A DNA stretch of 64,000 bases, taken from Megaustenia siamemsis (Eukaryota > Mollusca > Gastropoda > Stylommatophora > Ariophantidae). Of the stretch, positions 4,261 through 59,858 are shown one piece after another. Both the position numbers and the translations under genes were made by a program. The DNA lies in contig JAVIAB010000049.1 of the NCBI GenBank assembly GCA_032433765.1, positions 24,791,602-24,855,601 of the forward strand, in the 5' to 3' direction. The notes under the pieces are model-generated. The model made no database searches. It saw only the letters and a list, made by a program, of their open reading frames with translations, and had not been told where the DNA came from. Position 1 is the stretch's first letter. Every line of letters begins with the position of its first letter.

Positions 4261-4440
4261 CCTCTATAAATGCCATTATAAATAATGACTAATTTATTCT
4301 ATATGCTATAAGTGGGAATATTAAAAAGAATAACGTAAAATTGTCAAATTAATATAATTAAATTATGTTTTAAGTTCTTGCAAAAGATGTATTTAAAAAA
4401 ACGTTTAGGAATTATATTTGACAGAGGTATCTGATCATCT

Positions 4441-26749: not shown

Positions 26750-28752
26750 GCAATAGAGATGAAAAGAATATTTTGAAGACCTGTTAAACATACCAACTAC
26801 CAATAAGACAACAAAAACCACGCTAGAACTCACAAATACTGAACCCAACATCATGAAAGAGGAAATCTAAAAAGTAATCAAATATGCACCAGTAAATAAA
26901 GCACCGGGGATAGATAACATACCAATAGAAATTATAGCAGCAGCCGGAGAAACAGGAGTGCAATGGCTGCACAGAATATTTAATGCAACATGGCACCAAC
27001 AACAAGCCCCAGAAGACTGGCAACATGCAATCATCATACCAATATGGAAAAAGAAAGGTAGCAAAAGAGACTGCAGTCAATATAGAGGTATATCTCTTCT
27101 CAGCCATGTAGGAAAGCTATACGCCAAAATCTTGGGAAAAAGGCTGAGACCAATAATAGAACTACAGTTAAGCGATTCTCAAATGGGGTTCCGAAAAAAA
27201 ACAGAGGATGTACTGACGCACTATTCACATTAAAACTGCTTGCAGAAAGAACGACAAAACACAATCAAAACGTATACATAGCCTTCATTGACCAGGAAAA
27301 AGCATTCGACAGAGTAAACAGAGAACAACTGTGGGAGATACTAACAACATACGGAGTAAGCCAACATCTAACCAACCTTATTAAAAGTCTCTACATCAAC
27401 AGCAGCTGCAAGGTCAGAACAGCAGCAAGGCTACACAGACCACTTCGAAGTTAAATCAGGTGTAAGACAGGGGTGCGTACTATCCCCCTACTGTTTATTA
27501 CATACATGGACTATATATGCAAGCTAGCCAAACCATCAGAGACAGGAGATCAACGAGCTTTATTTGCAGACGGCCAGGCACTAATACATGAAACAATAGA
27601 AGACCTATAAGAACACTTAAACAAACTCAACATCTCAGGCACAAAATACAACATGAAAATCAACATCAACAAAACAGAAGTCATGAATGTCGCCAAAAAT
27701 GAACAGAACATCAACATAACAATAGAAGGCAGACAACTAAAACAAGTAGAGGAATTCAAATACCTAGGAAGTCTAATGACAAACGATAATTCTCAAACAG
27801 CAGAAATAGAATCAAGATGCAACAAAGCTTGTCAAATCATCGGACAGTTATCACCACTATTGTTCAACAAGGAAATAAGTCTGGAGGCAAAACGAGCACT
27901 ATACAATACAATCTTCATCCCAACGTTGTGCTACCAATGCCAGACCTGGACTCTAGATGCAAGAACAATAAGAAAAATAACCTCTACAGAGATGAAATGT
28001 GTTAGACGAATGACAGGAAACAGTCTGAGAGATAAGATCAGAAATGAAGAACTGAGTAAAAATGCTATGAACAGCCCCCGCCATAGAATATATAAGGAAA
28101 CAACAGATAAAGTGGTTTGGCCACGTGACATGGCAGAAAGAACAAAACACAACACAACGAGCCTTCAACAAACGTTGTGAGAATACCGGACCCAAGAGTC
28201 GACCACGAAAAAGATGGATCGATGGAATATTAGAAGCACAAGGAAACATAACAGTAGCAGAGGCGAACAGAAGAGCAAAAGATGGATCGAGGAATATTAG
28301 AAGCACAAGGAAACATAACAGTAGCAGAGGCGAACAGAAGAGCAAAAGATGGATCGATGGAATATTAGAAGCACAAGGAAAACATAACAGTAGCAGAGGC
28401 GAACAGAAGAGCAAAAGATGGATCGATGGAATATTAGAAGCACTAGGAAACATAACAGTAGCAGAGGCGAACAGAAGAGCAAAAGATGGATCGATGGAAT
28501 ATTAGAAGCACTAGGAAACATAACAGTAGCAGAGGCGAACAGAAGAGCAAAAGATGGATCGATGGAATATTAGAAGCACTAGGAAACATAACAGTAGCAG
28601 AGGCGAACAGAAGAGCAAAAGATGGATCGATGGAATATTAGAAGCACTAGGAAACATAACAGTAGCAGAGGCGAACAGAAGAGCAAAAGACAGCAAATTA
28701 TATCTCCCCTCGACGCTGAAAGGCAGATGAGGAAGGAAAGAAAAAGAAGAAG
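26750..28752 (+). mobile_element. LINE-E, 2.0 kb, nested in LINE-A
   Basis: Flanked by 9-bp atatctagt (26741-26749 and 28753-28761). It codes in broken frames for a reverse transcriptase: NKAPGIDNIPIEIIAAAG, WQHAIIIPIWKKKGSKRDC, YRGISLLSHVGKLYAKIL, then FIDQEKAFDRVNREQ. Here the usual YADD reads FADG, so the catalytic second Asp is lost. Next come EFKYLGSLMTNDNSQ and CQTWTLDARTIRKITSTEM, then the C-terminus with RKRWIDGILEAQGNITVAE and ISPLDAERQMRKE. The tail is AAG-rich. 5'-truncated and inactive. Confidence 0.9.
28213..28688 (+). repeat. 68-bp tandem repeat inside LINE-E, 7 copies
   Basis: Units begin gatggatcgatggaatatt at 28213, 28281, 28348, 28417, 28485, 28553 and 28621 and end gaacagaagagcaaaa. 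The fragment at 3754-3992 has one unit only. Since 68 is not divisible by 3, the expansion also shifts frame at every copy. Confidence 0.96.
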
Positions 28753-32059: not shown

Positions 32060-35000
32060 GTATATGATGTCAGATATGGACAGTAGTGTCTCGATAAGGT
32101 AGTGATACATGGACAGGTGTCATAAATAAGGTAGTCAGACAATGACTCTAGTGTCATAAATAAGGTAGTCAGACAAGGACACTAGTGTCATAAATAAGGT
32201 AGTCAGACAAGGTCAGTAGTATCATATAGTCAAACAAGGAGTCATACATAAGGTAGTCAGACAATGACACTAATGTCATAAATAAGATAGTCAGACAAGA
32301 ACAGTGGTATCATGACCGTCAAACAGGGACAGTAGTATCTTATAAGACAGTCAAACAAGGACAGTAGTATCTTATAAGACAGTCAAACAAGGACAGTAGT
32401 ATCTTATAAGACAGTCAAACAAGGACAGTAGTGTCATAAATAAGGTAGTCAGACAAGGACAGTAGTGTCATAAAAAAGGTTGTCAGACAAGGACAGTAGT
32501 GTCATAAATAAGGTAGTCAGACAAGGACACTAGTGTCATAAATAAGGTAGTCAGACACGGACAGTAGTGTCATCAATAAGGTAGTCAGACACAGACACTA
32601 GTGTCATAAATAAGGTAGTCAGACAAGGACAGTAGTGTCATAAATAAGGTAGTCAGACAAGGACACTAGTGTCATAAATAAGGTAGTAGACAAGGACACT
32701 AGTGTCATAAATAAGGTAGTAGACAAGGACACTAGTGTCATAAATAAGGTAGTCAGACACGGACACTAGTGTCATAAATAAGGTAGTCAGACAAGGACAG
32801 TAGTGTCATAAATAAGGTAGTCAGACAAGGACAGTAGTGTCATAAATAAGGTAGTCAGACACGGACAGTAGTGTCATAAATAAGGTAGTCAGACAAGGAC
32901 AGTAGTGTCATCAATAAGGTAGTCAGACACGGACAGTAGTGTCATCAATAAGGTAGTCAGACAAGGACAGTAGTGTCATAAATAAGGTAGTCAGACACGG
33001 ACAGTAGTGTCATCAATAAGGTAGTCAGACACAGACACTAGTGTCATAAATAGGTAGTCAGACAAGGACACTAGTGTCATAAATAAGGTAGTCAGACAAG
33101 GACAGTAGTGTCATAAATAAGGTAGTCAGACACGGACAGTAGTGTCATAAATAAGGTAGTCAGACACAGACACTAGTGTCATAAATAAGGTAGTCAGACA
33201 CAGACACTAGTGTCATAAATAAGGTAATCAGACAAGGACAGTAGTGTCATAAATAAGGTAGTCAGACACGGACAGTAGTGTCATCAATAAGGTAGTCAGA
33301 CACAGACACTAGTGTCATAAATAAGGTAGTCAGACAAGGACACTAGTGTCATAATAAGGTAGTCAGACAAGGACAGTAGTGTCATAAATAAGGTAGTAGA
33401 CAAGGACACTAGTGTCATAAATAAGGTAGTCAGACACGGACACTAGTGTCATAAATAAGGTAGTCAGACAAGGACACTAGTGTCATAAATAAGGTAGTCA
33501 GACAAGGACAGTAGTGTCATAAATAAGGTAGTCAGACAAGGACACTAGTGTCATAAATAGGTAGTAGACAAGGACACTAGTGTCATAAATAAGGTAGTCA
33601 GACAAGGACAGTAGTGTCATAAATAAGGTAGTCAGACAAGGACACTAGTGTCATAAATAAGGTAGTCAGACAAGGACACTAGTGTCATAAATAAGGTAGT
33701 CAGACAAGGACACTAGTGTCATAAATAAGGTAGTAGACAAGGACACTAGTGTCATAAATAAGGTAGTCAGACAAGGACAGTAGTGTCATAAATAAGGTAG
33801 TCAGACAAGGACAGTAGTGTCATAAATAAGGTAGTAGACAAGGACACTAGTGTCATAAATAAGGTAGTAGACAAGGACACTAGTGTCATAAATAAGGTAG
33901 TCAGACAAGGACACTAGTGTCATAAATAAGGTAGTCAGACAAGGACAGTAGTGTCATAAATAAGGTAGTCAGACAAGGACACTAGTGTCATAAATAAGGT
34001 AGTCAGACAAGGACAGTAGTGTCATAAATAAGGTAGTCAGACAAGGACACTAGTGTCATAAATAAGGTAGTAGACAAGGACACTAGTGTCATAAATAAGG
34101 TAGTAGACAAGGACACTAGTGTCATAAATAAGGTAGTCAGACAAGGACAGTAGTGTCATAAATAAGGTAGTCAGACAAGGACACTAGTGTCATAAATAAG
34201 GTAGTCAGACAAGGACACTAGTGTCATAATAAGGTAGTAGACAAGGACACTAGTGTCATAAATAAGGTAGTAGACAAGGACACTAGTGTCATAAATAAGG
34301 TAGTAGACAAGGACAGTAGTGTCATAAATAAGGTAGTCAGACAAGGACACTAGTGTCATAAATAAGGTAGTCAGACAAGGACAGTAGTGTCATAAATAAG
34401 GTAGTCAAGACAAGGACACTAGTGTCATAAATAAGGTAGTCAGACAAGGACAGTAGTGTCATAAATAAGGTAGTCAGACAAGGACACTAGTGTCATAAAT
34501 AAGGTAGTCAGACAAGGACAGTAGTGTCATAAATAAGGTAGTCAGACAAGGACACTAGTGTCATAAATAAGGTAGTCAGACAAGGACACTAGTGTCATAA
34601 ATAAGGTAGTCAGACAAGGACACTAGTGTCATAAATAAGGTAGTCAGACAAGGACAGTAGTGTCATAAATAAGGTAGTCAGACAAGGACACTAGTGTCAT
34701 AAATAAGGTAGTCAGACAAGGACACTAGTGTCATAAATAAGGTAGTCAGACAAGGACACTAGTGTCATAAATAAGGTAGTAGACAAGGACACTAGTGTCA
34801 TAAATAAGGTAGTCAGACAAGGACAGTAGTGTCATAAATAAGGTAGTCAGACAAGGACACTAGTGTCATAAATAAGGTAGTCAGACAAGGACACTAGTGT
34901 CATAAATAAGGTAGTAGACAAGGACACTAGTGTCATAAATAAGGTAGTCAGACAAGGACAGTAGTGTCATAAATAAGGTAGTCAGACAAGGACAGTAGTG

Positions 35001-38000
35001 TCATAAATAAGGTAGTAGACAAGGACACTAGTGTCATAAATAAGGTAGTCAGACAAGGACAGTAGTGTCATAAATAAGGTAGTCAGACACAGACACTAGT
35101 GTCATAAATAAGGTAGTCAGACAAGGACAGTAGTGTCATAAATAAGGTAGTCACACAAGGACAGTAGTGTCATAAATAAGGTAGTCACACAAGGACAGTA
35201 GTGTCATAAATAAGGTAGTCAGACACGGACAGTAGTGTCATAAATAAGGTAGTCAGACAAGGACAGTAGTGTCATCAATAAGGTAGTCAGACACGGACAG
35301 TAGTGTCATCAATAAGGTAGTCAGACAAGGACAGTAGTGTCATAAATAAGGTAGTCAGACACGGACAGTAGTGTCATCAATAAGGTAGTCAGACACAGAC
35401 ACTAGTGTCATAAATAAGGTAGTCAGACAAGGACACTAGTGTCATAAATAAGGTAGTCAGACAAGGACAGTAGTGTCATAAATAAGGTAGTCAGACACGG
35501 ACAGTAGTGTCATAAATAAGGTAGTCAGACACAGACACTAGTGTCATAAATAAGGTAGTCAGACACAGACACTAGTGTCATAAATAAGGTAGTCAGACAA
35601 GGACAGTAGTGTCATAAATAAGGTAGTCAGACACGGACACTAGTGTCATAAATAAGGTAGTCAGACACAGACACTAGTGTCATAAATAAGGTAGTCAGAC
35701 AAGGACACTAGTGTCATAAATAAGGTAGTCAGACAAGGACAGTAGTGTCATAAATAAGGTAGTAGACAAGGACACTAGTGTCATAAATAAGGTAGTCAGA
35801 CACGGACAGTAGTGTCATAAATAAGGTAGTCAGACAAGGACACTAGTGTCATAAATAAGGTAGTCAGACAAGGACAGTAGTGTCATAAATAAGGTAGTCA
35901 GACAAGGACACTAGTGTCATAAATAAGGTAGTCAGACAAGGACACTAGTGTCATAAATAAGGTAGTCAGACAAGGACAGTAGTGTCATAAATAAGGTAGT
36001 CAGACAAGGACAGTAGTGTCATAAATAAGGTAGTAGACAAGGACACTAGTGTCATAAATAAGGTAGTCAGACAAGGACACTAGTGTCATAAATAAGGTAG
36101 TCAGACAAGGACAGTAGTATCATAAATAAGGTAGTCAGACAGGACACTAGTGTCATAAATAAGGTAGTCAGACAAGGACACTAGTGTCATAAATAAGGTA
36201 GTCAGACAAGGACAGTAGTGTCATAAATAAGGTAGTCAGACAAGGACACTAGTGTCATAAATAAGGTAGTAGACAAGGACACTAGTGTCATAAATAAGGT
36301 AGTAGACAAGGACACTAGTGTCATAAATAAGGTAGTCAGACAAGGACAGTAGTGTCATAAATAAGGTAGTCAGACAAGGACACTAGTGTCATAAATAAGG
36401 TAGTCAGACAAGGACACTAGTGTCATAATAAGGTAGTAGACAAGGACACTAGTGTCATAAATAAGGTAGTAGACAAGGACAGTAGTGTCATAAATAAGGT
36501 AGTCAGACAAGGACACTAGTGTCATAAATAAGGTAGTCAGACAAGGACAGTAGTGTCATAAATAAGGTAGTCAGACAAGGACAGTAGTGTCATAAATAAG
36601 GTAGTCAGACAAGGACAGTAGTGTCATAAATAAGGTAGTCAGACAAGGACAGTAGTGTCATAAATAAGGTAGTCAGACAAGGACAGTAGTGTCATAAATA
36701 AGGTAGTCAGACAAGGACAGTAGTGTCATAAATAAGGTAGTCAGACAAGGAAACTAGTGTCATAAATAAGGTAGTCAGACAAGGACAGTAGTGTCATAAA
36801 TAAGGTAGTCAGACAAGGACAGTAGTGTCATAAATAAGGTAGTCAGACAAGGACAGTAGTGTCATAAATAAGGTAGTCAGACAAGGACAGTAGTGTCATA
36901 AATAAGGTAGTCAGACAAGGACAGTAGTGTCATAAATAAGGTAGTCAGACAAGGACACTAGTGTCATAAATAAGGTAGTCAGACAAGGACACTAGTGTCA
37001 TAAATAAGGTAGTCAGACAAGGACACTAGTGTCATAAATAAGGTAGTAGACAAGGACAGTAGTGTCATAAATAAGGTAGTCAGACAAGGACAGTAGTGTC
37101 ATAAATAAGGTAGTCAGACAAGGACACTAGTGTCATAAATAAGGTAGTAGACAAGGACACTAGTGTCATAAATAAGGTAGTAGACAAGGACACTAGTGTC
37201 ATAAATAAGGTAGTCAGACAAGGACACTAGTGTCATAAATAAGGTAGTCAGACAAGGACAGTAGTGTCATAAATAAGGTAGTCAGACAAGGACACTAGTG
37301 TCATAAATAAGGTAGTCAGACAAGGACAGTAGTGTCATAAATAAGGTAGTAGACAAGGACACTAGTGTCATAAATAAGGTAGTAGACAAGGACACTAGTG
37401 TCATAAATAAGGTAGTAGACAAGGACACTAGTGTCATAAATAAGGTAGTCAGACACGGACAGTAGTGTCATAAATAAGGTAGTCAGACACAGACACTAGT
37501 GTCATAAATAAGGTAGTCAGACACAGACACTAATGTCATAAATAAGGTAGTCAGACAAGGACAGTAGTGTCATAAATAAGGTAGTCAGACACGGACACTA
37601 GTGTCATAAATAAGGTAGTCAGACACGGACACTAGTGTCATAAATAAGGTAGTCAGACAAGGACACTAGTGTCATAAATAAGGTAGTCAGACAAGGACAG
37701 TAGTGTCATAAATAAGGTAGTAGACAAGGACACTAGTGTCATAAATAAGGTAGTCAGACACGGACAGTAGTGTCATAAATAAGGTAGTCAGACAAGGACA
37801 CTAGTGTCATAAATAAGGTAGTAGACAAGGACACTAGTGTCATAAATAAGGTAGTCAGACAAGGACAGTAGTGTCATAAATAAGGTAGTCAGACAAGGAC
37901 ACTAGTGTCATAAATAAGGTAGTCAGACAAGGACACTAGTGTCATAAATAAGGTAGTAGACAAGGACAGTAGTGTCATAAATAAGGTAGTCAGACAAGGA

Positions 38001-40975
38001 CAGTAGTGTCATAAATAAGGTAGTAGACAAGGACACTAGTGTCATAAATAAGGTAGTAGACAAGGACACTAGTGTCATAAATAAGGTAGTCAGACAAGGA
38101 CACTAGTGTCATAAATAAGGTAGTCAGACAAGGACAGTAGTGTCATAAATAAGGTAGTCAGACAAGGACACTAGTGTCATAAATAAGGTAGTCAGACAAG
38201 GACAGTAGTGTCATAAATAAGGTAGTCAGACAAGGACACTAGTGTCATAAATAAGGTAGTAGACAAGGACACTAGTGTCATAAATAAGGTAGTAGACAAG
38301 GACACTAGTGTCATAAATAAGGTAGTCAGACAAGGACAGTAGTGTCATAAATAAGGTAGTCAGACAAGGACACTAGTGTCATAAATAAGGTAGTCAGACA
38401 AGGACACTAGTGTCATAATAAGGTAGTAGACAAGGACACTAGTGTCATAAATAAGGTAGTAGACAAGGACACTAGTGTCATAAATAAGGTAGTAGACAAG
38501 GACAGTAGTGTCATAAATAAGGTAGTCAGACAAGGACAGTAGTGTCATAAATAAGGTAGTCAGACAAGGACACTAGTGTCATAAATAAGGTAGTCAGACA
38601 AGGACAGTAGTGTCATAAATAAGGTAGTCAGACAAGGACAGTAGTGTCATAAATAAGGTAGTCAGACAAGGACAGTAGTGTCATAAATAAGGTAGTCAGA
38701 CAAGGACAGTAGTGTCATAAATAAGGTAGTCAGACAAGGACACTAGTGTCATAAATAAGGTAGTCAGACAAGGACAGTAGTGTCATAAATAAGGTAGTCA
38801 GTCAAGGACAGTAGTGTCATAAATAAGGTAGTCAGACAAGGACAGTAGTGTCATAAATAAGGTAGTCAGACAAGGACAGTAGTGTCATAAATAAGGTAGT
38901 CAGACAAGGACACTAGTGTCATAAATAAGGTAGTCAGACAAGGACACTAGTGTCATAAATAAGGTAGTCAGACAAGGACACTAGTGTCATAAATAAGGTA
39001 GTAGACAAGGACACTAGTGTCATAAATAAGGTAGTCAGACAAGGACAGTAGTGTCATAAATAAGGTAGTCAGACAAGGACACTAGTGTCATAAATAAGGT
39101 AGTCAGACAAGGACACTAGTGTCATAAATAAGGTAGTAGACAAGGACACTAGTGTCATAAATAAGGTAGTCAGACAAGGACAGTAGTGTCATAAATAAGG
39201 TAGTCAGACAAGGACAGTAGTGTCATAAATAAGGTAGTAGACAAGGACACTAGTGTCATAAATAAGGTAGTCAGACAAGGACAGTAGTGTCATAAATAAG
39301 GTAGTCAGACACAGACACTAGTGTCATAAATAAGGTAGTCAGACAAGGACACTAGTGTCATAAATAAGGTAGTAGACAAGGACAGTAGTGTCATAAATAA
39401 GGTAGTCAGACAAGGACAGTAGTGTCATAAATAAGGTAGTCAGACAAGGACACTAGTGTCATAAATAAGGTAGTAGACAAGGACACTAGTGTCATAAATA
39501 AGGTAGTAGACAAGGACACTAGTGTCATAAATAAGGTAGTCAGACAAGGACACTAGTGTCATAAATAAGGTAGTCAGACAAGGACAGTAGTGTCATAAAT
39601 AAGGTAGTCAGACAAGGACACTAGTGTCATAAATAAGGTAGTCAGACAAGGACAGTAGTGTCATAAATAAGGTAGTAGACAAGGACACTAGTGTCATAAA
39701 TAAGGTAGTAGACAAGGACACTAGTGTCATAAATAAGGTAGTAGACAAGGACACTAGTGTCATAAATAAGGTAGTAGACAAGGACACTAGTGTCATAAAT
39801 AAGGTAGTCAGACAAGGACAGTAGTGTCATAAATAAGGTAGTAGACAAGGACACTAGTGTCATAAATAAGGTAGTAGACAAGGACACTAGTGTCATAAAT
39901 AAGGTAGTCAGACAAGGACAGTAGTGTCATAAATAAGGTAGTAGACAAGGACACTAGTGTCATAAATAAGGTAGTAGACAAGGACACTAGTGTCATAAAT
40001 AAGGTAGTAGACAAGGACACTAGTGTCATAAATAAGGTAGTCTGACAAGGACACTAGTGTCATAAATAAGGTAGTCAGACAAGGACACTAGTGTCATAAA
40101 TAAGGTAGTAGACAAGGACACTAGTGTCATAAATAAGGTAGTCAGACAAGGACACTAGTGTCATAAATAAGGTAGTCAGACAAGGACACTAGTGTCATAA
40201 ATAAGGTAGTCTGACAAGGACAGTAGTGTCATAAATAAGGTAGTAGACAAGGACACTAGTGTCATAAATAAGGTAGTCAGACAAGGACACTAGTGTCATA
40301 AATAAGTAGTAGACAAGGACACTAGTGTCATAAATAAGGTAGTCTGACAAGGACAGTAGTGTCATAAATAAGGTAGTAGACAAGGACACTAGTGTCATAA
40401 ATAAGGTAGTAGACAAGGACACTAGTGTCATAAATAAGGTAGTCAGACAAGGACACTAGTGTCATAAATAAGGTAGTAGACAAGGACACTAGTGTCATAA
40501 ATAAGGTAGTAGACAAGGACACTAGTGTCATAAATAAGGTAGTCAGACAAGGACACTAGTGTCATAAATAAGGTAGTCAGACAAGGACACTAGTGTCATA
40601 AATAAGGTAGTCAGACAAGGACACTAGTGTCATAAATAAGGTATTCAGACAAGGACACTAGTGTCATAAATAAGGTAGTCAGACAAGGACACTAGTGTCA
40701 TAAATAAGGTAGTCAGACAAGGACAGTAGTGTCATAAATAAGGTAGTCAGACAAGGACACTAGTGTCATAAATAAGGTAGTCAGACAAGGACACTAGTGT
40801 CATAAATAAGGTAGTCAGACAAGGACACTAGTGTCATAAATAAGGTAGTCAGACACGGACACTAGTGTCATAAATAAGGTAGTCAGACACGGACAGTAGT
40901 GTCATAAATAAGGTAGTCAGACAAGGACACTAGTGTCATAAATAAGGTAGTCAGACAAGGATAGTAGTATCATAT
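32060..40975. repeat. 34-bp satellite, about 8.9 kb, roughly 265 copies
   Basis: Unit gtcataaataaggtagtcag plus acaaggacagtagt (34 bp), with a common 32-bp form lacking CA (ggtagtagac). Other forms have ctagt for gtagt, acacgg or acacag for acaagg, and gtcatcaata. The ctagt form creates the 12-bp palindrome gacactagtgtc. Diagnostic variants recur in the same order at kilobase spacing (see findings). Left-edge units are diverged. The right edge decays near 40975. Confidence 0.97.
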
Positions 40976-40989
40976 AAGAAGCCAAACAA

Positions 40990-42050
40990 GGACAGTATTG
41001 TCATATATAATTTGGTCATATAAAAATTAAATAAATGTACAGTGTGGACAATATAGTGAGGGAGAGTGGTATTAGTACACACTATTGTGTTAGGACATTT
41101 GTTTTCTCCGCGTAGATGTTTTAATGTCATTTCCCTTGTTTTCTCCCAGCTATCATTGATATCGTTGCTGAAATATCCAGCTTTGAGACAAATAAACTGA
41201 TATCATTTTTGGAACACTTGGATCTGTGTGTCTCAGCTGGGACTGCTTGAGATAGTCGTGCATGTGCAGACTTTGTAGCAGGCAATCGAGTTCAACATAA
41301 CGTTTGCTGCTGGACACTCATCATTAGACGTTGTACAAAGTTCTGTCCAGACCGCCGTTTGGTCATTGTGACTTGACCCAGACAAGCTTATGCCTTCTAG
41401 GTTTCCAATGAATACATACATGATGGACCACGACCTCGCTGCCATTGATGTCAACCACAATCATGTTGCTGTCAAGCGACACCCAACTTGCTGCTCCTCG
41501 AATCCCCTGGATAATGAGATTTTAAAAAGACGTTCGCCAGGACTGTCTTCTATCAATGACTATGTGGTGAGTTGTTTAGTAAGTTTATAAGGTCACAGTC
41601 TGACATCTGTAGAACATGTAGGTCATACACTGATATCTGTATAACATTTGAGTCGCAGACTGACTTTACTACCTTCTCTAGTGAAACATTTGAGGTTCGA
41701 CGTCACTTCCTTGGTTTATCACACTACATCCTACCCACTACCGACCTCATCAAAACTACGTGGTCCCATTATGAGTTTATTCCTCGAAAACTGTATCTTT
41801 ATTTGTGTGTGAATGAGTGTGCGTTTATTTTGTGTGGCAATTCAAAACTGTTTTGTGTAGTCACGCACCCCCGCCACATATAATAAATCAGCAAACACAC
41901 TTTCTTCCTATTTTTTCTCATGTGTCTTTCTTCCCTCCCTCATCCCACACCCCACATTTCTTACCGTTAGGTTCTGTGCGGGGCCGTTTATTCTGCAGCC
42001 AGTACCATCAATATTTAGGTGGATCAAAAGTGATCTTTTATTTGTTTCTG
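40990..42050. other. no supported gene
   Basis: Intronic. Open frames at 41233-41460 (minus) and 41572-41883 (plus) have no motif I recognise. The region 41140-41580 has balanced codon-like composition on the minus strand (SNMIVVDINGSEVVV-like) and could be another decayed lectin-domain relic, but I cannot support that. Confidence 0.35.
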
Positions 42051-53241: not shown

Positions 53242-53621
53242 AGATGGGCACAGCCAGAAACAAGAGACCTAGTGGGCGTGTAAGAAGACTTATCAACCAA
53301 CACAGAACTGGAGTCGTCAGTCGCTGGACACTTCGAGACTTCCTGAGGAGGGGATCTGAGCACCTGTGGACATGCTCGGAGTGCATGATGATGACCCGCA
53401 AATAAACTCAATTATTTGTTTTTGATTTGCTGCTTCGCTTCCTCTACAATGAGTGTAGTAGTTGTCTGAAGGAACCTGCAGTGAATGCATGACTTGCATG
53501 GCAGCTAGCACGATGGCTTAGTGACATGGTGGGTTCAGTCCCGTCTCGTTAACATAGCTAGATAACCTGGCTAAGTTAGGTGAGAAAGCATATAACAGCA
53601 GGACAGAACACTGGCAAGTAC

Positions 53622-53905: not shown

Positions 53906-54308
53906 AAACCAGTGTTTCTCAATGTCGTGTGTCCGCGGACGCCATTATGCCCGCCAAGTGTTGTCTTGGTGCCCGGGAAGGCCCGGCTCATTCCAGTGAG
54001 TGACGTCATTTATTGTCCGGCATTCAGTTGAACGAAAGATTGAGAGAGAGAGAGAGAGAAAACGAATGAAAGGATTAAGAAACATTGACGTTGTTCCCTT
54101 CCCAATAAACAAAAGCGGTAACCGTCGACATCAAATGGTGAGAACAAAGCAGATTTAGCGGTTCGAATAAGCCTTAATGTGGTATCTTGAAAGACTTGAG
54201 TAGAGGTGAGCGCGCATCGACATCAATCATACGTCGCTAACTTTGAAAATCTGGCAGAGGAAACGAACTTCCACAAATCGCATTAGTTCAGTGTAGTTTA
54301 ATGTGAAC
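53906..54308. other. no gene seen
   Basis: Contains a short (GA)n run near 54038. Otherwise unassigned. Confidence 0.4.
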
Positions 54309-55530
54309 GGCACAGGACGTCGTCAACCATGAGTCCACCACTTCTCTCCTTCGGATGAAAGAGATGGTAGTTAGGACAGGCACAGCCAGAAACAGAGAAA
54401 TTTTAGTTGATGTGTAAGAAGATAAGCTGTCACGCAAAGTCAGGAACGACTCCGGAGTATCGCTTGCCTGTAAAGACTTCGACCAAACATTAAGTTTGCA
54501 GAAAACTAATATACTCGGTCAGGACGTCGAAGCAACACCTGCAACCTCTATCGACAACTACAAACTCGATATCGTTTTAGCAGTAAAGCTCCCTGGAGTC
54601 CATCTTGAACAACAAACTAACTCTAGATACAGAAATTGACACTGGTATTGGTAAAGCTGCTACCACCTTTGCCCGTCTTTCTAGGCGTGTCTGTCAAAAC
54701 AACAAACTGATAATTAAAACGAAGGCTGCATTTTACAATGCCTGCATAATTAGTATCCTCCTGTATGGCAGCGAATCTTGGACAACTTATACAAAGCAGG
54801 AGAGAAGGCTAAAAGCATTTCATGTGTCGATGTCTACACCGTATTCTTGGTATCACCTGGAAGGACAAAGTGACAAACGTGGAGGTCATGACTCGCACAG
54901 GCCTCCCGAACATCTACACGCTGCTCACACAACGTAGGCTACTCTGGTTTGGCCATGTACACCGTATTCTTGGTATCACCTGGAAAGATAAAGTGACAAA
55001 CACGGAGGTCATGACTCGCACAGACCTCCCGACCATCTACACGCTGCTCAAACAACGCAGGCTACTCTGGTTTGGCCATATACACCGTATGAAAGATGGC
55101 CGCATACCAAAGATATACTCTACGGGCAACTGGCAGATGAAAAAAAAGGACTAGTGGGCGTCCAAAACTTCGATTTTTAGACGGGTGTAAACGTGACATG
55201 AAGACTCTAAACATAAACCCTGCAGTCTGGGAAGACATAGCTGCAGACCGCAATCTTTGGAAACACACCTAAAGGTTCACATCAAACAAGAAGCAGATTC
55301 CTAGAAAAAGAGAATACACGGCGAAAGAAAAGAAAAATAACATTTCTAGGGGCGCTGGAAAATCCATAGTCAACTAGGACTGACGGAGGCTGACGCATGA
55401 CGAAGTGATAATAAGATTTATCAACCAACACAGAACTGGAGTCGTCAGTCGCTGACCACTACGAGACTTGCTGTAGAGGGGATCTGAGCACCTATGGACA
55501 TGTTCGGAGTGCAATGATGATGACCCGCTA
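54309..55530 (+). mobile_element. LINE-H 3' end interrupted by LINE-J
   Basis: Left piece 54309-54423 (diverged cacaggacttcg to tgtgtaagaagat). Right piece 55413-55530 reads LINQHRTGVVSR and ends ggagtgcaatgatgatgacc. It runs straight into the 41/44-bp satellite, whose unit is its own 3' terminus. The interruption is LINE-J. Confidence 0.8.
54424..55412 (+). mobile_element. LINE-J fragment with internal 123-bp duplication
   Basis: Coding relic: NNKLTLDTEIDTGIGKAATT, FARLSRRVCQNNKLIIKTKA, CIISILLYGSESWTTYTKQE, RLKAFH, CLHRILGITWKDKVTNVEV, LPNIYTLLTQRRLLWFGHVH, then KDGRIPK. The segment 54836-54958 is repeated at 54959-55081 (123 bp, 41 codons, in frame). A 5-bp aagat (54419-54423 and 55413-55417) is a possible short TSD. 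Frameshifts after 54830 and 55120. Similar C-termini (HLRCLRRILGISWQDK) are widespread in invertebrate LINEs (recalled). Confidence 0.82.
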
Positions 55531-57757
55531 ATAACTTAACATGTTCGGAGTGCAATGATGATGACCCGCTAATAACTTAACATGTTCGGAGTGCAATGAT
55601 GATGACCCGCTAATAACTTAACATGTTCGGAGTGCAATGATGATGACCCGCTAATAACTTAACATGTTCGGAGTGCAATGATGATGACCGCTAATAACTT
55701 AACATGTTCGGAGTGCAATGATGATGACCCGCTAATAACTTAACATGTTCGAGTGCAATGATGATGATCCGCTAATAACTCAACATGTTCGGAGTGCAAT
55801 GATGATGACCCGCTAATAACTCAACATGTTCAGAATGCAATGATGATGACCCGCTAATAACTCAACGACATGTTCAGAGTGCAATGATGATGACCCGCTA
55901 ATAACTCAACGACATGTTCAGAGTGCAATGATGATGACCCGCTAATAACTCAACGACATGTTCGGAGTGCAATGATGATGACTTCTAATAACTCAACGAC
56001 ATGTTCGGAGTGCAATGATGATGACACGCAAACAACTCAACGACGTGTTCGGAGTGAAATGATGATGACCCGCTAATAACTCAACGACATGTTCGGAGTG
56101 CAATGATGATGACACGCAAACAACTCAACGATATGTTCAGAGTGCAATGATGATGACCCGCTAATAACTCAACGACATGTTCAGAGTGCAATGATGATGA
56201 CCCACTAATAACTCAACGACATGTTCAGAGTGCAATGATGATGACCCGCTAATAACTCAACGACATGTTCGGAGTGCAATGATGATGACCCGCTAATAAC
56301 TCAACGACATGTTTGGAGTGAAATGATGATGACCCGCTAATAACTCAACGACATGTTCAGAGTGCAATGATGATGACCCGCTAATAACTCAACGACATGT
56401 TCAGAGTGCAATGATGATGACCCGCTAATAACTCAACGACATGTTCAGAGTGCAATGATGATGACCCGCTAATAACTCAACGACATGTTCAGAGTGCAAT
56501 GATGATGACCCGCTAATAACTCAACGACATGTTCAGAGTGCAATGATGATGACCCACTAATAACTCAACGACATGTTCAGAGTGCAATGATGATGACCCG
56601 CTAATAACTCAACGACATGTTCAGAGTGCAATGATGATGACCCGCTAATAACTCAACGACATGTTCAGAGTGCAATGATGATGACCCGCTAATAACTCAA
56701 CGACATGTTCAGAGTGCAATGATGATGACCCGCTAATAACTCAACGACATGTTCAGAGTGCAATGATGATGACCCGCTAATAACTCAACGACATGTTCAG
56801 AATGCAATGATGATGACCCGCTAATAACTCAACGACATGTTCAGAGTGCAATGATGATGACCCGCTAATAACTCAACGACATGTTCAGAGTGAAATGATG
56901 ATGACCCGCTAATAACTCAACGACATGTTCAGAGTGCAATTATGATGACCCGCTAATAACTCAACGACATGTTCAGAGTGCAATGATGATGACCCGCTAA
57001 TAACTCAACGACATGTTCAGAGTGAAATGATGATGACCCGCTAATAACTCAACGGCATGTTCAGAGTGCAATTATGATGACCCACTAATAACTCAACGAC
57101 ATGTTCAGAGTGCAATGATGATGACCCACTAATAACTCAACGACATGTTCAGAGTGAAATGATGATGACCCGCTAATAACTCAACGGCATGTTCAGAGTG
57201 CAATTATGATGACCCACTAATAACTCAACGACATGTTCAGAGTGCAATGATGATGACCCACTAATAACTCAACGACATGTTCAGAGTGCAATGATGATGA
57301 CCCACTAATAACTCAACGACATGTTCAGAGTGAAATGATGATGACCCACTAATAACTCAACGACATGTTCAGAATGCAATGATGATGACCCACTAATAAC
57401 TCAACGACATGTTCAGAGTGCAATGATGATGACCCGCTAATAACTCAACGACATGTTCAGAGTGAAATTATGATGACCCGCTAATAACTCAACGACATGT
57501 TCAGAGTGCAATGATGATGACCCACTAATAACTCAACGACATGTTCAGAGTGCAATGATGATGACCCACTAATAACTCAACGACATGTTCAGAGTGCAAT
57601 GATGATGACCCACTAATAACTCAACGACATGTTCAGAGTGCAATGATGATGACCCGCTAATAACTCAACGACATGTTCAGAGTGCAATGATGATGACCCG
57701 CTAATAACTCAACGACATGATCAGAGTGCAATGATGATGACCCACTAATAACTCAAC
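55498..57757 (+). repeat. 41/44-bp satellite derived from the LINE-H 3' end, about 52 copies
   Basis: Left units (41 bp) read catgttcggagtgcaatgat plus gatgacccgctaataactta and a. From about 55860 the unit becomes 44 bp through actcaacga. The unit equals the last bases of LINE-H (compare 53373-53409 and the complement of 57778-57823). It starts in register with the adjacent LINE-H copy. Variants: ttcgg/ttcag, cccgc/cccac, gcaat/gaaat. Confidence 0.96.
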
Positions 57758-57769
57758 GACGTGTTACGT

Positions 57770-59846
57770 TATTGAGTTATTGAGTTATTTGCGGGTCATC
57801 ATCATTGCACTCCGAACCTGTCCATAGGTGCTCAGATCCCCTCCTCAGCAATTCCCTCAGTGTCCAGCGACTGACGACTCCAGTTCTATGTTGGTTGATA
57901 AGTCTTCTTACACGGCCACCAAGTTTCTCATTTCTGGCTGTGCCCATCTTAACTCCCATTTCCATCATCCGAAGAAGCGACGTTGATCTGTGTTTTGTCG
58001 AAGTCCTGTGCTCTTCCACATCTCGGAGTGCATTGATGACGTCCACCGATCCATCGGTTGCCCGTCCTCAACGACAGCGCAGCTAGCCAACCTGTCCGCT
58101 CTCTCATTTCCCCGTACTCCCGCATGTCCAGGGACATAGACAAAGGTGACCTTACGTATTTTGGATTTCTGCAACGACTCTACCCATTGCATGCGTACAA
58201 AGCCCGCCTCCACTTTTTTATCATGCTCATCGAATCACTCAGTATACATGCGTGGATGTAGTCTTGTGACTCTAACCATTTGAATGCCTTGGTCACTGCC
58301 ATCACCTCCATTGTCATGCTACTCGTGGTCATGGCGTATGCACCACTGTCTTCCTTGGCTATTCTGCCTGCCGAACGTGCTGTAAATGCCCATGCACTTT
58401 TTTCGTGTCGTCTTACAGATCCGTCTGTATAGATGACTGCATCTTTCTCATCGGTGTTATCGCAGATGAGACCGTTGACCTCAGCATTAACCACGACTGG
58501 GTTTCTGTTCCCTACTCTTCCTGTCGAGTGTGACAATACATGAGAAAGTCCCCTTGAATGACGCAGGCACCGGTATCCACTCCTCACCAACGCTGAGATT
58601 GGTAAGCCCACATACCTGTTTGATGACATCTTCTGCTCGGCCCACCCATGATTTGCCTCTTTTTAGCCTGGTACCTTTCTCTGTGTTGAGCACGTGGTGC
58701 AATGGATGCTCTGTATCTGTACTAATCTTCAGGTATGCTCGTGCTCTCCAGATCTTGATTCTGTCATCCATGGTTGGAAAGTCAAGAAGATACCTCATTG
58801 CCACACAGGGAGTGTCCCTCGTACATCCCAGGATAATGCGCATGGCTTCATTTTGTATTTTCTCCAGCCTATCAATTTGAGTCATACTGACAGTAAGAAT
58901 GGCCAGGGCATACTCGATTGGTGCGAGGACTAATCCCTGGAACAGAAGAGTAAGTAGCCTCTGCTCGATGTTGGCAGCTGCCATGACCTTCAAGGCGGCT
59001 AATCCTTTGCGGGATTTTGTTATCACATGGTCAACGTGGTCCCGAAAACACAGGCTGCGATCAAACTTAACTCCGAGGTATGTCATCAACTTGTCCCTGG
59101 TCACCTCATCAGCTCCCATTCGTACTACCGGTGTGGTCGTATTAACGATATGATTGTTAAGGGAGAACCATGAAACTGATGCTTTATTAGGATTAACCAA
59201 GGCACCTGAAACCCCACACCAGGAAGAAATGCGATCGAGTTCGTCTTTCATTGTGGAGGCGATTCCCCGTCTGTCTCTTCCCTGTCGATATACCAGAATA
59301 TCATCAGCAAAAGTCATAGTTCTTCCCCTCCCATCCAGCTGTTGTTCCGTGATCGTTATTGTGTACACGTTAAATAGAACTGGTGACAATGGTGAGCCTT
59401 GTGGCAGCCCAGGACAAATGGATGTTGGCTCGGAAGACCAACTTCCACATCTGAGTATCACCTTCCTCTGAAACAGTGCCGCGGCGATCCATCTTATGAG
59501 GAAGGGTTCACCGCCAGTTTGAGAAGCATATGCATGAGATATTCAAATGGTACCCTGTTGTATGCATCCTCCAGATCTATAGCAGCAGCACAAGTCTCCT
59601 CTCGTCTGTGGAAGCCTTCGAAGACGTCATAGGCAAATACTGCCGCATTGAGCCATGTCTCTTTGTTATATCTATAACCTCCGAGTGTGGATGGGAATAC
59701 ACGTTTCTGTTCAAGGCGACACGTGAGGACACGGGCAACTATTTTCTCCAGCAGCTTGCCCGCAGTGTTCTGCATTGTGATGATTCTGTAGGCACTGATC
59801 TGAGAATGGTCCTTGTTTGGCTTCGGTAGCGGTAGTAAGTAGCTGT
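57770..59846 (-). mobile_element. LINE-H, 2.1-kb copy: RT plus RNase H, with TSD
   Basis: Perfect 12-bp duplication gacgtgttacgt (57758-57769 and 59847-59858). Read on the minus strand in order: RT start (AGKLLEKIVARVLTCRLE, AAIDLEDAYNRVPF at about 59560), then GLPQGSPLSPVLFN and FADD in an open frame of 324 codons (58487-59461). RNase H follows with AVIYTDGSVRRHEKSAW, the SMTMEVMAVTKAFKWLES motif and VPGHAGVRGNERADRLA. The C-terminus is RLINQHRTGVVSRWTLRELL. FADD with a C-terminal RNase H points to the I/Jockey-type superfamilies rather than RTE. At least four frameshifts: inactive. The 3' end has a short (AATAACTC)n tail. Confidence 0.93.
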
Positions 59847-59858
59847 GACGTGTTACGT

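What the first reader, a model, noticed from the sequence alone, without database searches (positions are those of the whole stretch)
55413..57757. A 2.3-kb satellite born from the 3' end of a LINE
The repeat unit is the terminal 41 bases of LINE-H. The array starts in register with a LINE-H copy that ends at its left edge. Left units are 41 bp like the element end, and distal ones become 44 bp by gaining actcaacga. This catches the conversion of a retrotransposon terminus into a satellite, with the ancestral state and later variant ordered along the array.
Basis: seen in the sequence. Interest (0 to 1): 0.75.

Follow-up and report, generated by a model that had tools for sequence, protein, structure and literature searches.

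The report
LINE tail that seeds satellite arrays
This stretch holds 52 head-to-tail copies of the last 41 to 44 letters of a jumping gene; it likely grew in place from one inserted copy, and the same gene end also makes tandem arrays at 32 other places seen in this genome, so it shows how satellite DNA probably gets started.

Summary
The array is real: 52 units, 55501-57761, in register with the 3' end of an old LINE-H copy. Units 1-8 are 40-41 bp, units 9-52 are 44 bp (one is 43).

LINE end to satellite is well supported. The same terminus forms arrays at 32 other loci found, with units of 25 to 72 bp; one, of 110 kb, also starts at a LINE-H copy. None of 39 young LINE-H copies carries an array, so arrays probably arise on older copies. 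At L125 and L115 flanking DNA lies inside every unit seen, and at L023 three host bases do, so those duplications followed insertion. A 72-bp class looks partly inherited from a source element.

Two corrections.

TE-derived satellites, including LINE 3' ones, are known; the value here is the number of founding events visible in one genome.

The parts
53242..53412 (+). Separate LINE-H 3' end with a single unit and no array (local control)
54301..54422 (+). Left fragment of the old LINE-H copy (LINE-L) that heads the array (that it is the same copy as 55409-55500 is inferred)
54423..55391 (+). Different LINE (called LINE-M here), probably inserted into LINE-L; start approximate; the 17 bp 55392-55408 are unassigned
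   Evidence: 39 of 39 other scored hits that reach the 3' end stop at query base 772-773 = window 55391-55392; LINE-H positions 4398|4391 flank it; ends of 8 other copies
55409..55500 (+). Right fragment of LINE-L, running without a break into unit 1
55501..55826 (+). Units 1-8, 40-41 bp, LINE-proximal block lacking CGA (inferred: derived by loss of 3 bp)
55827..57761 (+). Units 9-52, 44 bp (one of 43), junction ctcaac|gacatg (inferred: founding spacing)
57758..57769 (+). Left target-site duplication of LINE-R (GACGTGTTACGT), overlapping the last bases of the array
57770..59846 (-). LINE-R: later, inverted, 5'-truncated insertion of LINE-H at the distal edge of the array; holds the partial RT reading frame 58487-59461
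59847..59858 (+). Right target-site duplication of LINE-R (GACGTGTTACGT)

Best explanation
The array is 52 tandem copies of the terminal 41-44 bp of LINE-H, in register with a LINE-H copy at its left edge, and it likely grew at this site from that one copy. Inferred steps: (1) LINE-L inserted here with an ordinary short tail. (2) A tandem duplication joined the tail to an internal site 44 bp upstream, giving the junction ctcaac|gacatg. (3) Slippage or unequal exchange multiplied and locally homogenised the units. (4) A 3-bp loss (CGA) produced the 41-bp block, which spread over the eight LINE-proximal units. (5) LINE-M probably inserted into the LINE-L body. (6) A young LINE-H (LINE-R) inserted, inverted, at the distal edge; its insertion is shown directly by a perfect 12-bp target-site duplication. 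Elsewhere in the genome the same terminus has been duplicated at other breakpoints, giving other unit lengths. In the one example examined per class, the LINE-H junctions show 0-4 bp of overlap or one extra base, except at L125, where both copies of a ~13-bp target-site duplication served as the repeats. No function is claimed: the array is most likely a by-product.
For: Unit = LINE 3' end, in register. Units are ordered along the array. Arrays of LINE-H 3' units at 33 loci including this one, with units of 25, 33, 36-39, 41/44, 42, 43, 44, 47, 52, 55, 65 and 72 bp; a LINE-H body is seen directly upstream at 27 of 33. C26: 110,340 bp, 2,951 unit anchors, headed by a LINE-H copy (81.5% over 503 bp) and ending in a LINE tail. 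Target-site duplications bracket LINE plus array at L009 (18 bp), L011 (9), L017 (8), L020 (8), L023 (10) and L113 (10). Flanking or host bases inside units at L125, L115 and L023. 0 of 39 young copies carry an array. LINE-R TSD.
Against: The window's own founding event cannot be seen: there is no empty site, and no target-site duplication was found for LINE-L (the candidate at 55401 is about what chance gives by my own estimate). The junction ctcaac|gacatg at both L127 and this locus could mean a source LINE already carried a 44-bp dimer, so step 2 may predate insertion. The 72-bp class shows such element-borne inheritance: the second unit carries tatgaacatg at L009, L010 and L013. In one search no adjacent target-site duplication was found at 7 of the 12 array loci tested. 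No sample of old LINE-H copies chosen without regard to arrays was obtained (the search did not complete), so the rate of conversion with age is unknown.
Confidence: 0.75

Rival explanations
1. Element-borne repeats: LINE-H sources already carried tandem 3' units, LINE-L arrived with a dimer or short array, and only its length changed afterwards.
For: Second 72-bp units share tatgaacatg at L009, L010 and L013; L015 has a related alternation and all three units of L017 carry it. The junction ctcaac|gacatg is shared by L127 and the window. A 25-bp junction recurs at about a dozen loci.
Against: 0 of 39 young copies have a second unit. The 72-bp label is not clustered on a weakly resolved body tree: 7 changes, shuffled mean 6.4, 427 of 500 shuffles as low. 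Units at L011 and L016 share locus-private changes. L115, L125 and L023 have flanking or host bases inside units.
Confidence: 0.3
2. One reading: 41-bp units came first and 44-bp units gained bases later.
For: The 41-bp units adjoin LINE-L and keep the LINE base G at position 6. One single-unit copy, L021, ends cttaaca like units 1-6.
Against: The 44-bp unit holds LINE-internal GA that the 41-bp unit lacks, and the same 44-bp junction exists at L127; the exact 41-bp junction was found only in this array among the loci fetched. Units 1, 2, 3, 4 and 6 are identical, that is recently homogenised.
Confidence: 0.2
3. Capture: an older satellite was picked up by a LINE, which then carried it as its 3' end.
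For: The genome is minisatellite-rich here (40% of the window by TRF), and 10 of 39 young LINE-H tails have an unrelated minisatellite within about 150 bp.
Against: Units of many lengths and phases all fall inside one LINE 3' end. Young single-unit copies are abundant. Arrays lie between LINE body and LINE tail, some within target-site duplications.
Confidence: 0.03
4. Template jumping during target-primed reverse transcription: the enzyme re-primed on the tail and laid down several units at insertion.
For: In most classes the units end at the tail (TAACTCAA)n, with few or no bases of microhomology at junctions.
Against: 0 of 39 fresh insertions show it. At L115, L125 and L023 flanking or host bases lie between units, which needs DNA already in place. 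Internal LINE stretches also expand (80 bp at L127, 20 bp at L021, 68 bp at window 28209).
Confidence: 0.1

Closest known systems
LINE-derived satellites: common cetacean satellite (L1 3' UTR), HinfI of chicken (CR1), HeT-A/TART-derived 18HT of Drosophila (listed in the review PMC9659126; passages read)
   Same: A stretch of a LINE, often 3', became the satellite monomer.
   Different: Here many separate arrays with different breakpoints from one terminus coexist with single-unit copies, so the founding step is exposed. The organism and LINE are different.
Minisatellite founding by slippage or unequal exchange between short flanking repeats (Haber and Louis 1998, as described in PMC6947457 and PMC3389668; passages read, original not seen)
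   Same: At L125 the unit runs from one ~13-bp target-site duplication to the other; at window 28209 the unit is flanked by AAAAGA.
   Different: The other LINE-H junctions examined have 0-4 bp overlap or one extra base, closer to microhomology joining.
TE-derived tandem repeats of the human genome (Ahmed and Liang 2012, PMC3389668; passages read; authors' names recalled)
   Same: Expansion of TE fragments; direct repeats or incomplete terminal units at some arrays.
   Different: There the majority of the 6,817 arrays it could not explain had only two units; here arrays reach 110 kb and a host target-site duplication can be part of the unit.
Molluscan TE-linked satellites: PcH-Sat of Patella (Nin-SINE, PMC11121367) and Helentron repeats of oysters (PMC7492417); titles and abstract starts only, in search listings
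   Same: Satellites tied to mobile elements in molluscs.
   Different: Source is a LINE terminus, not a SINE or Helentron; that the present genome is molluscan is a guess.

Membership tests
Satellite or minisatellite derived from a transposable element | Repeat unit homologous to part of a dispersed TE | tested here: met
   36 of 38 positions, score 66 against 37 at most in 2,000 shuffles; 40 scored LINE-H hits (itself plus 39 at 99%) on many contigs
Satellite or minisatellite derived from a transposable element | Array continuous with a copy of the TE, in register | tested here: met
   also 26 of the 32 other loci
Satellite or minisatellite derived from a transposable element | TE exists independently of the array | tested here: met
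   0 of 39 young copies carry arrays; the 44-bp array form was not found elsewhere beyond the dimer at L127 (40 scored candidates)
Satellite DNA in the strict sense (long heterochromatic arrays) | Long array, heterochromatic location | tested here: inconclusive
   The window array is 2.3 kb (minisatellite scale); the C26 relative is 110 kb; chromatin was not testable
Haber-Louis founding | Direct repeats of 5-10 bp flanking the founding motif | tested here: inconclusive
   Not seen at the window's junction; met at L125 and at window 28209
Element-borne 3' tandem repeats | Active copies carry the repeats | tested here: not met
   0 of 39 young copies; but an older 72-bp lineage shares unit-specific changes
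LINE with reverse transcriptase and RNase H | RT domain in the element | tested here: met
   PF00078, E 1.2e-11, in 58487-59461 minus; the best homologue listed carries PF00078 and PF00075, as does one from Elysia chlorotica. Clade not determined.

The most novel reading that the evidence does not exclude
Retroposition itself founds satellites. A LINE insertion brings a short tail plus a pair of target-site duplications, which act as ready-made direct repeats. At L125 the tandem unit is 39 bp of LINE end plus the ~13-bp target-site duplication; at L115 it is the LINE end plus about 14 bp of flank. LINE 3' termini, of LINE-H and independently of LINE-M, would be a standing nursery from which arrays of any unit length, up to a 110-kb satellite, keep arising in this genome.
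Probability: 0.4. Interest if true: 0.7.

Novelty: new member of a known kind. Interest (0 to 1): 0.5.

Why it matters
How a satellite takes its first step is rarely visible, because old arrays erase their beginnings. This genome holds dispersed single-unit copies, two-unit copies, short arrays and a 110-kb satellite, all from one known 75-bp terminus, several with target-site duplications still readable. That makes founding breakpoints, host-DNA capture and time order countable across many separate arrays.

Tried and rejected
1. 'CGA in the 44-bp unit is host target DNA' (my working idea, in the notes): rejected, because L127, at another site, has the same ctcaac|gacatg junction.

2. LINE-L's target-site duplication: best candidate cgaagtgata at 55401 (2 mismatches in 10). 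By my own estimate about one such match is expected by chance over 2,000 positions; not claimed.

3. 'The right half of LINE-L is a separate insertion because it is less diverged': rejected; across 136 pairs of copies the 3' segment is generally more conserved (0.89 against 0.81).

4. 'The inverted right LINE is part of the origin (palindrome)': rejected by its perfect 12-bp target-site duplication.

5. Body tree for one or many origins of the 72-bp class: too weakly resolved (one starred branch), label not clustered; the shared unit-2 variant nevertheless points to partial common ancestry.

6. Gradient in the 110-kb array: units next to the LINE are not closer to the LINE end than the rest (1.3-2.4 substitutions in the first five 400-bp bins against 1.5-2.1 beyond), so no birth order can be read there.

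7. Organism: a nuclear COX1 fragment gave no named close match; the nearest named LINE protein is from Elysia chlorotica (46% identity). 'Mollusc' is a guess.

8. The L112 row was mis-entered (wrong tail context) and is not used.

9. First unit split and first LINE-M print were faulty and were redone.

Full report
What is there. The array at 55501-57761 has 52 units. Units 1-6 end cttaaca, units 7-8 ctcaaca, units 9-52 ctcaacgaca or a near variant. Position 6 is G in units 1-8, 12-15, 19 and 20, and A in the rest. Variant acccac is mostly distal (units 17, 25, and 11 of the 16 units 37-52). Neighbouring units are more alike than units in general (mean distance 1.69 against 2.74; Mantel r 0.39, 0 of 2,000 permutations as high; within units 9-52 r 0.19, 4 of 2,000).

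Origin in LINE-H. The unit is the end of LINE-H (36 of 38 positions), and the LINE body runs into unit 1 without a break. The same window holds a single-unit LINE-H end at 53242-53412. LINE-L is probably broken by another LINE, LINE-M: 39 of 39 other scored hits that reach its 3' end stop at 55391-55392, and the LINE-H pieces on its two sides are contiguous in LINE-H. LINE-M's usual tail is missing here and 17 bp are unassigned.

A later insertion at the other edge. 57770-59846 is an inverted, 5'-truncated LINE-H flanked by perfect GACGTGTTACGT repeats. The array end ...ctcaacgacgtgttacgt therefore existed before it. This copy belongs to a young subfamily: 39 other copies match its body at 99% (only the best 40 of 1,924 candidates were scored).

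Young copies have no arrays. I fetched the ends of all 39: 0 of 39 have a second LINE-H unit in tandem. They end in the tail TAACTCAA, repeated about one to five times, then other DNA (at L059 an inverted LINE-H fragment).

Older copies often do. Two searches with array sequence (40 scored candidates each, so counts are lower bounds and biased to arrays) plus neighbouring DNA gave 33 array loci with this one. 72/65-bp class: 12 (L009-L011, L013-L017, L019, L020, L032, L122; L122 also turns into 25-bp units; L032 lies about 4 kb from the C26 array). 25/33/42-bp class: 12 (L012, L018, L114, L116-L121, L123, L124, L126). Others: this array, C26 (36/38/39), L127 (44, two units), L023 (55, two units), L115 (42), L112 (43), L111 and L113 (47), L125 (52). 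A LINE-H body is directly upstream at 27. At L113 and L125 there is no body, only the terminal piece. At L118, L121 and L124 the fetched stretch lay wholly inside the array, and L032 was not resolved. Single-unit ends seen in the same sample: L021, L022, L024, one in L023 and the window's own 53242-53412, and LINE-R.

The 110-kb satellite. C26:1490560-1600900 holds 2,951 unit anchors in 110,340 bp, mostly spaced 36, 38 or 39 bp. It starts at a LINE-H copy (81.5% over 503 bp) and ends in the canonical tail taactcaataactc. Similarity decays within about five units, as expected from local exchange.

Timing of the founding step. Target-site duplications bracket LINE plus array at L009 (18 bp), L011 (9), L017 (8), L020 (8), L023 (10) and L113 (10); matches of 8 bp are weak on their own. 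Of the 12 array loci tested, none adjacent was found at 7 (L010, L012, L013, L014, L016, L018, L019; L013 has a 9-bp match 53 bp upstream, and at L014 the LINE runs on beyond the homology used). At L125 the 5' flank aactaaaataaat recurs after the tail, and it or close variants separate the units. At L115 each unit seen carries about 14 bp (near aaatagagataag) that at the distal end continues into the unique flank; its likeness to the 5' flank is only suggestive (216 of 5,000 shuffles as good). At L023 GTT of the duplication ATGTTACATG lies inside the duplicated unit. These three need duplication after insertion. Against this as the only route: second 72-bp units share tatgaacatg at L009, L010 and L013, so some dimers were copied along with an element. 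Mean unit divergence within the ten 72-bp loci compared is 0.033 against 0.089 between, yet unit 1 is nearer to its own array than to any other locus at only 5 of 10.

Order at this locus. L127 has two units joined ctcaac|gacatg, the window's 44-bp junction. LINE-H reads ...tatggacatgttc, so GA belongs to the LINE; the 41-bp junction lacks it. Among the loci fetched, the exact 41-bp junction occurs only in this array. I conclude, as inference, that 44 bp was first and CGA was lost in the LINE-proximal block.

A second LINE does the same. Of 28 LINE-M 3' ends fetched (of 39 other hits), 3 (L047, L051, L101) carry tandem 29-bp copies of their own end.

Literature. Reviews list LINE untranslated or 3' regions among satellite sources (PMC9659126, PMC12628747; passages) and describe founding by short flanking repeats (PMC6947457, PMC3389668; passages). 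In nine answered searches (listings) I saw no title or abstract start reporting one LINE terminus that founds many arrays of different unit length, or target-site duplications inside satellite units. The library lacks most subscription papers, so this is weak evidence of absence.

Noticed in passing
window 28209-28690: 68-bp array (7 copies) inside the 3' part of a third LINE; the founding motif is flanked by the direct repeat AAAAGA.
   Followed up: partly
whole window: Tandem repeats cover about 40% of the 64 kb, including a 34-bp array of 8.8 kb at 32241-41010.
   Followed up: no
L052-L090 and L091-L110: Unrelated minisatellites lie within about 150 bp after the tail in 10 of 39 young LINE-H copies; 9 of 20 LINE-M copies have a repeat there, one of them (L101) LINE-M's own 29-bp unit. 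Insertion into arrays or seeding beside tails was not separated.
   Followed up: partly
L048, L050, L103, L108: LINE-M tails run directly into microsatellites (TA, CTAT, GTAT).
   Followed up: no
L127 1-303 and L130: 80-bp tandem repeat inside the LINE-H body, upstream of the 44-bp dimer.
   Followed up: no
L021 2744-3142: 20-bp x 20 array whose unit resembles, by eye, sequence in L014's 5' region, perhaps LINE-H body.
   Followed up: no
L122: One array switches from 72-bp to 25-bp units, a second founding event inside the first array.
   Followed up: partly
L059: A young LINE-H tail abuts what reads by eye as an inverted LINE-H body fragment.
   Followed up: no
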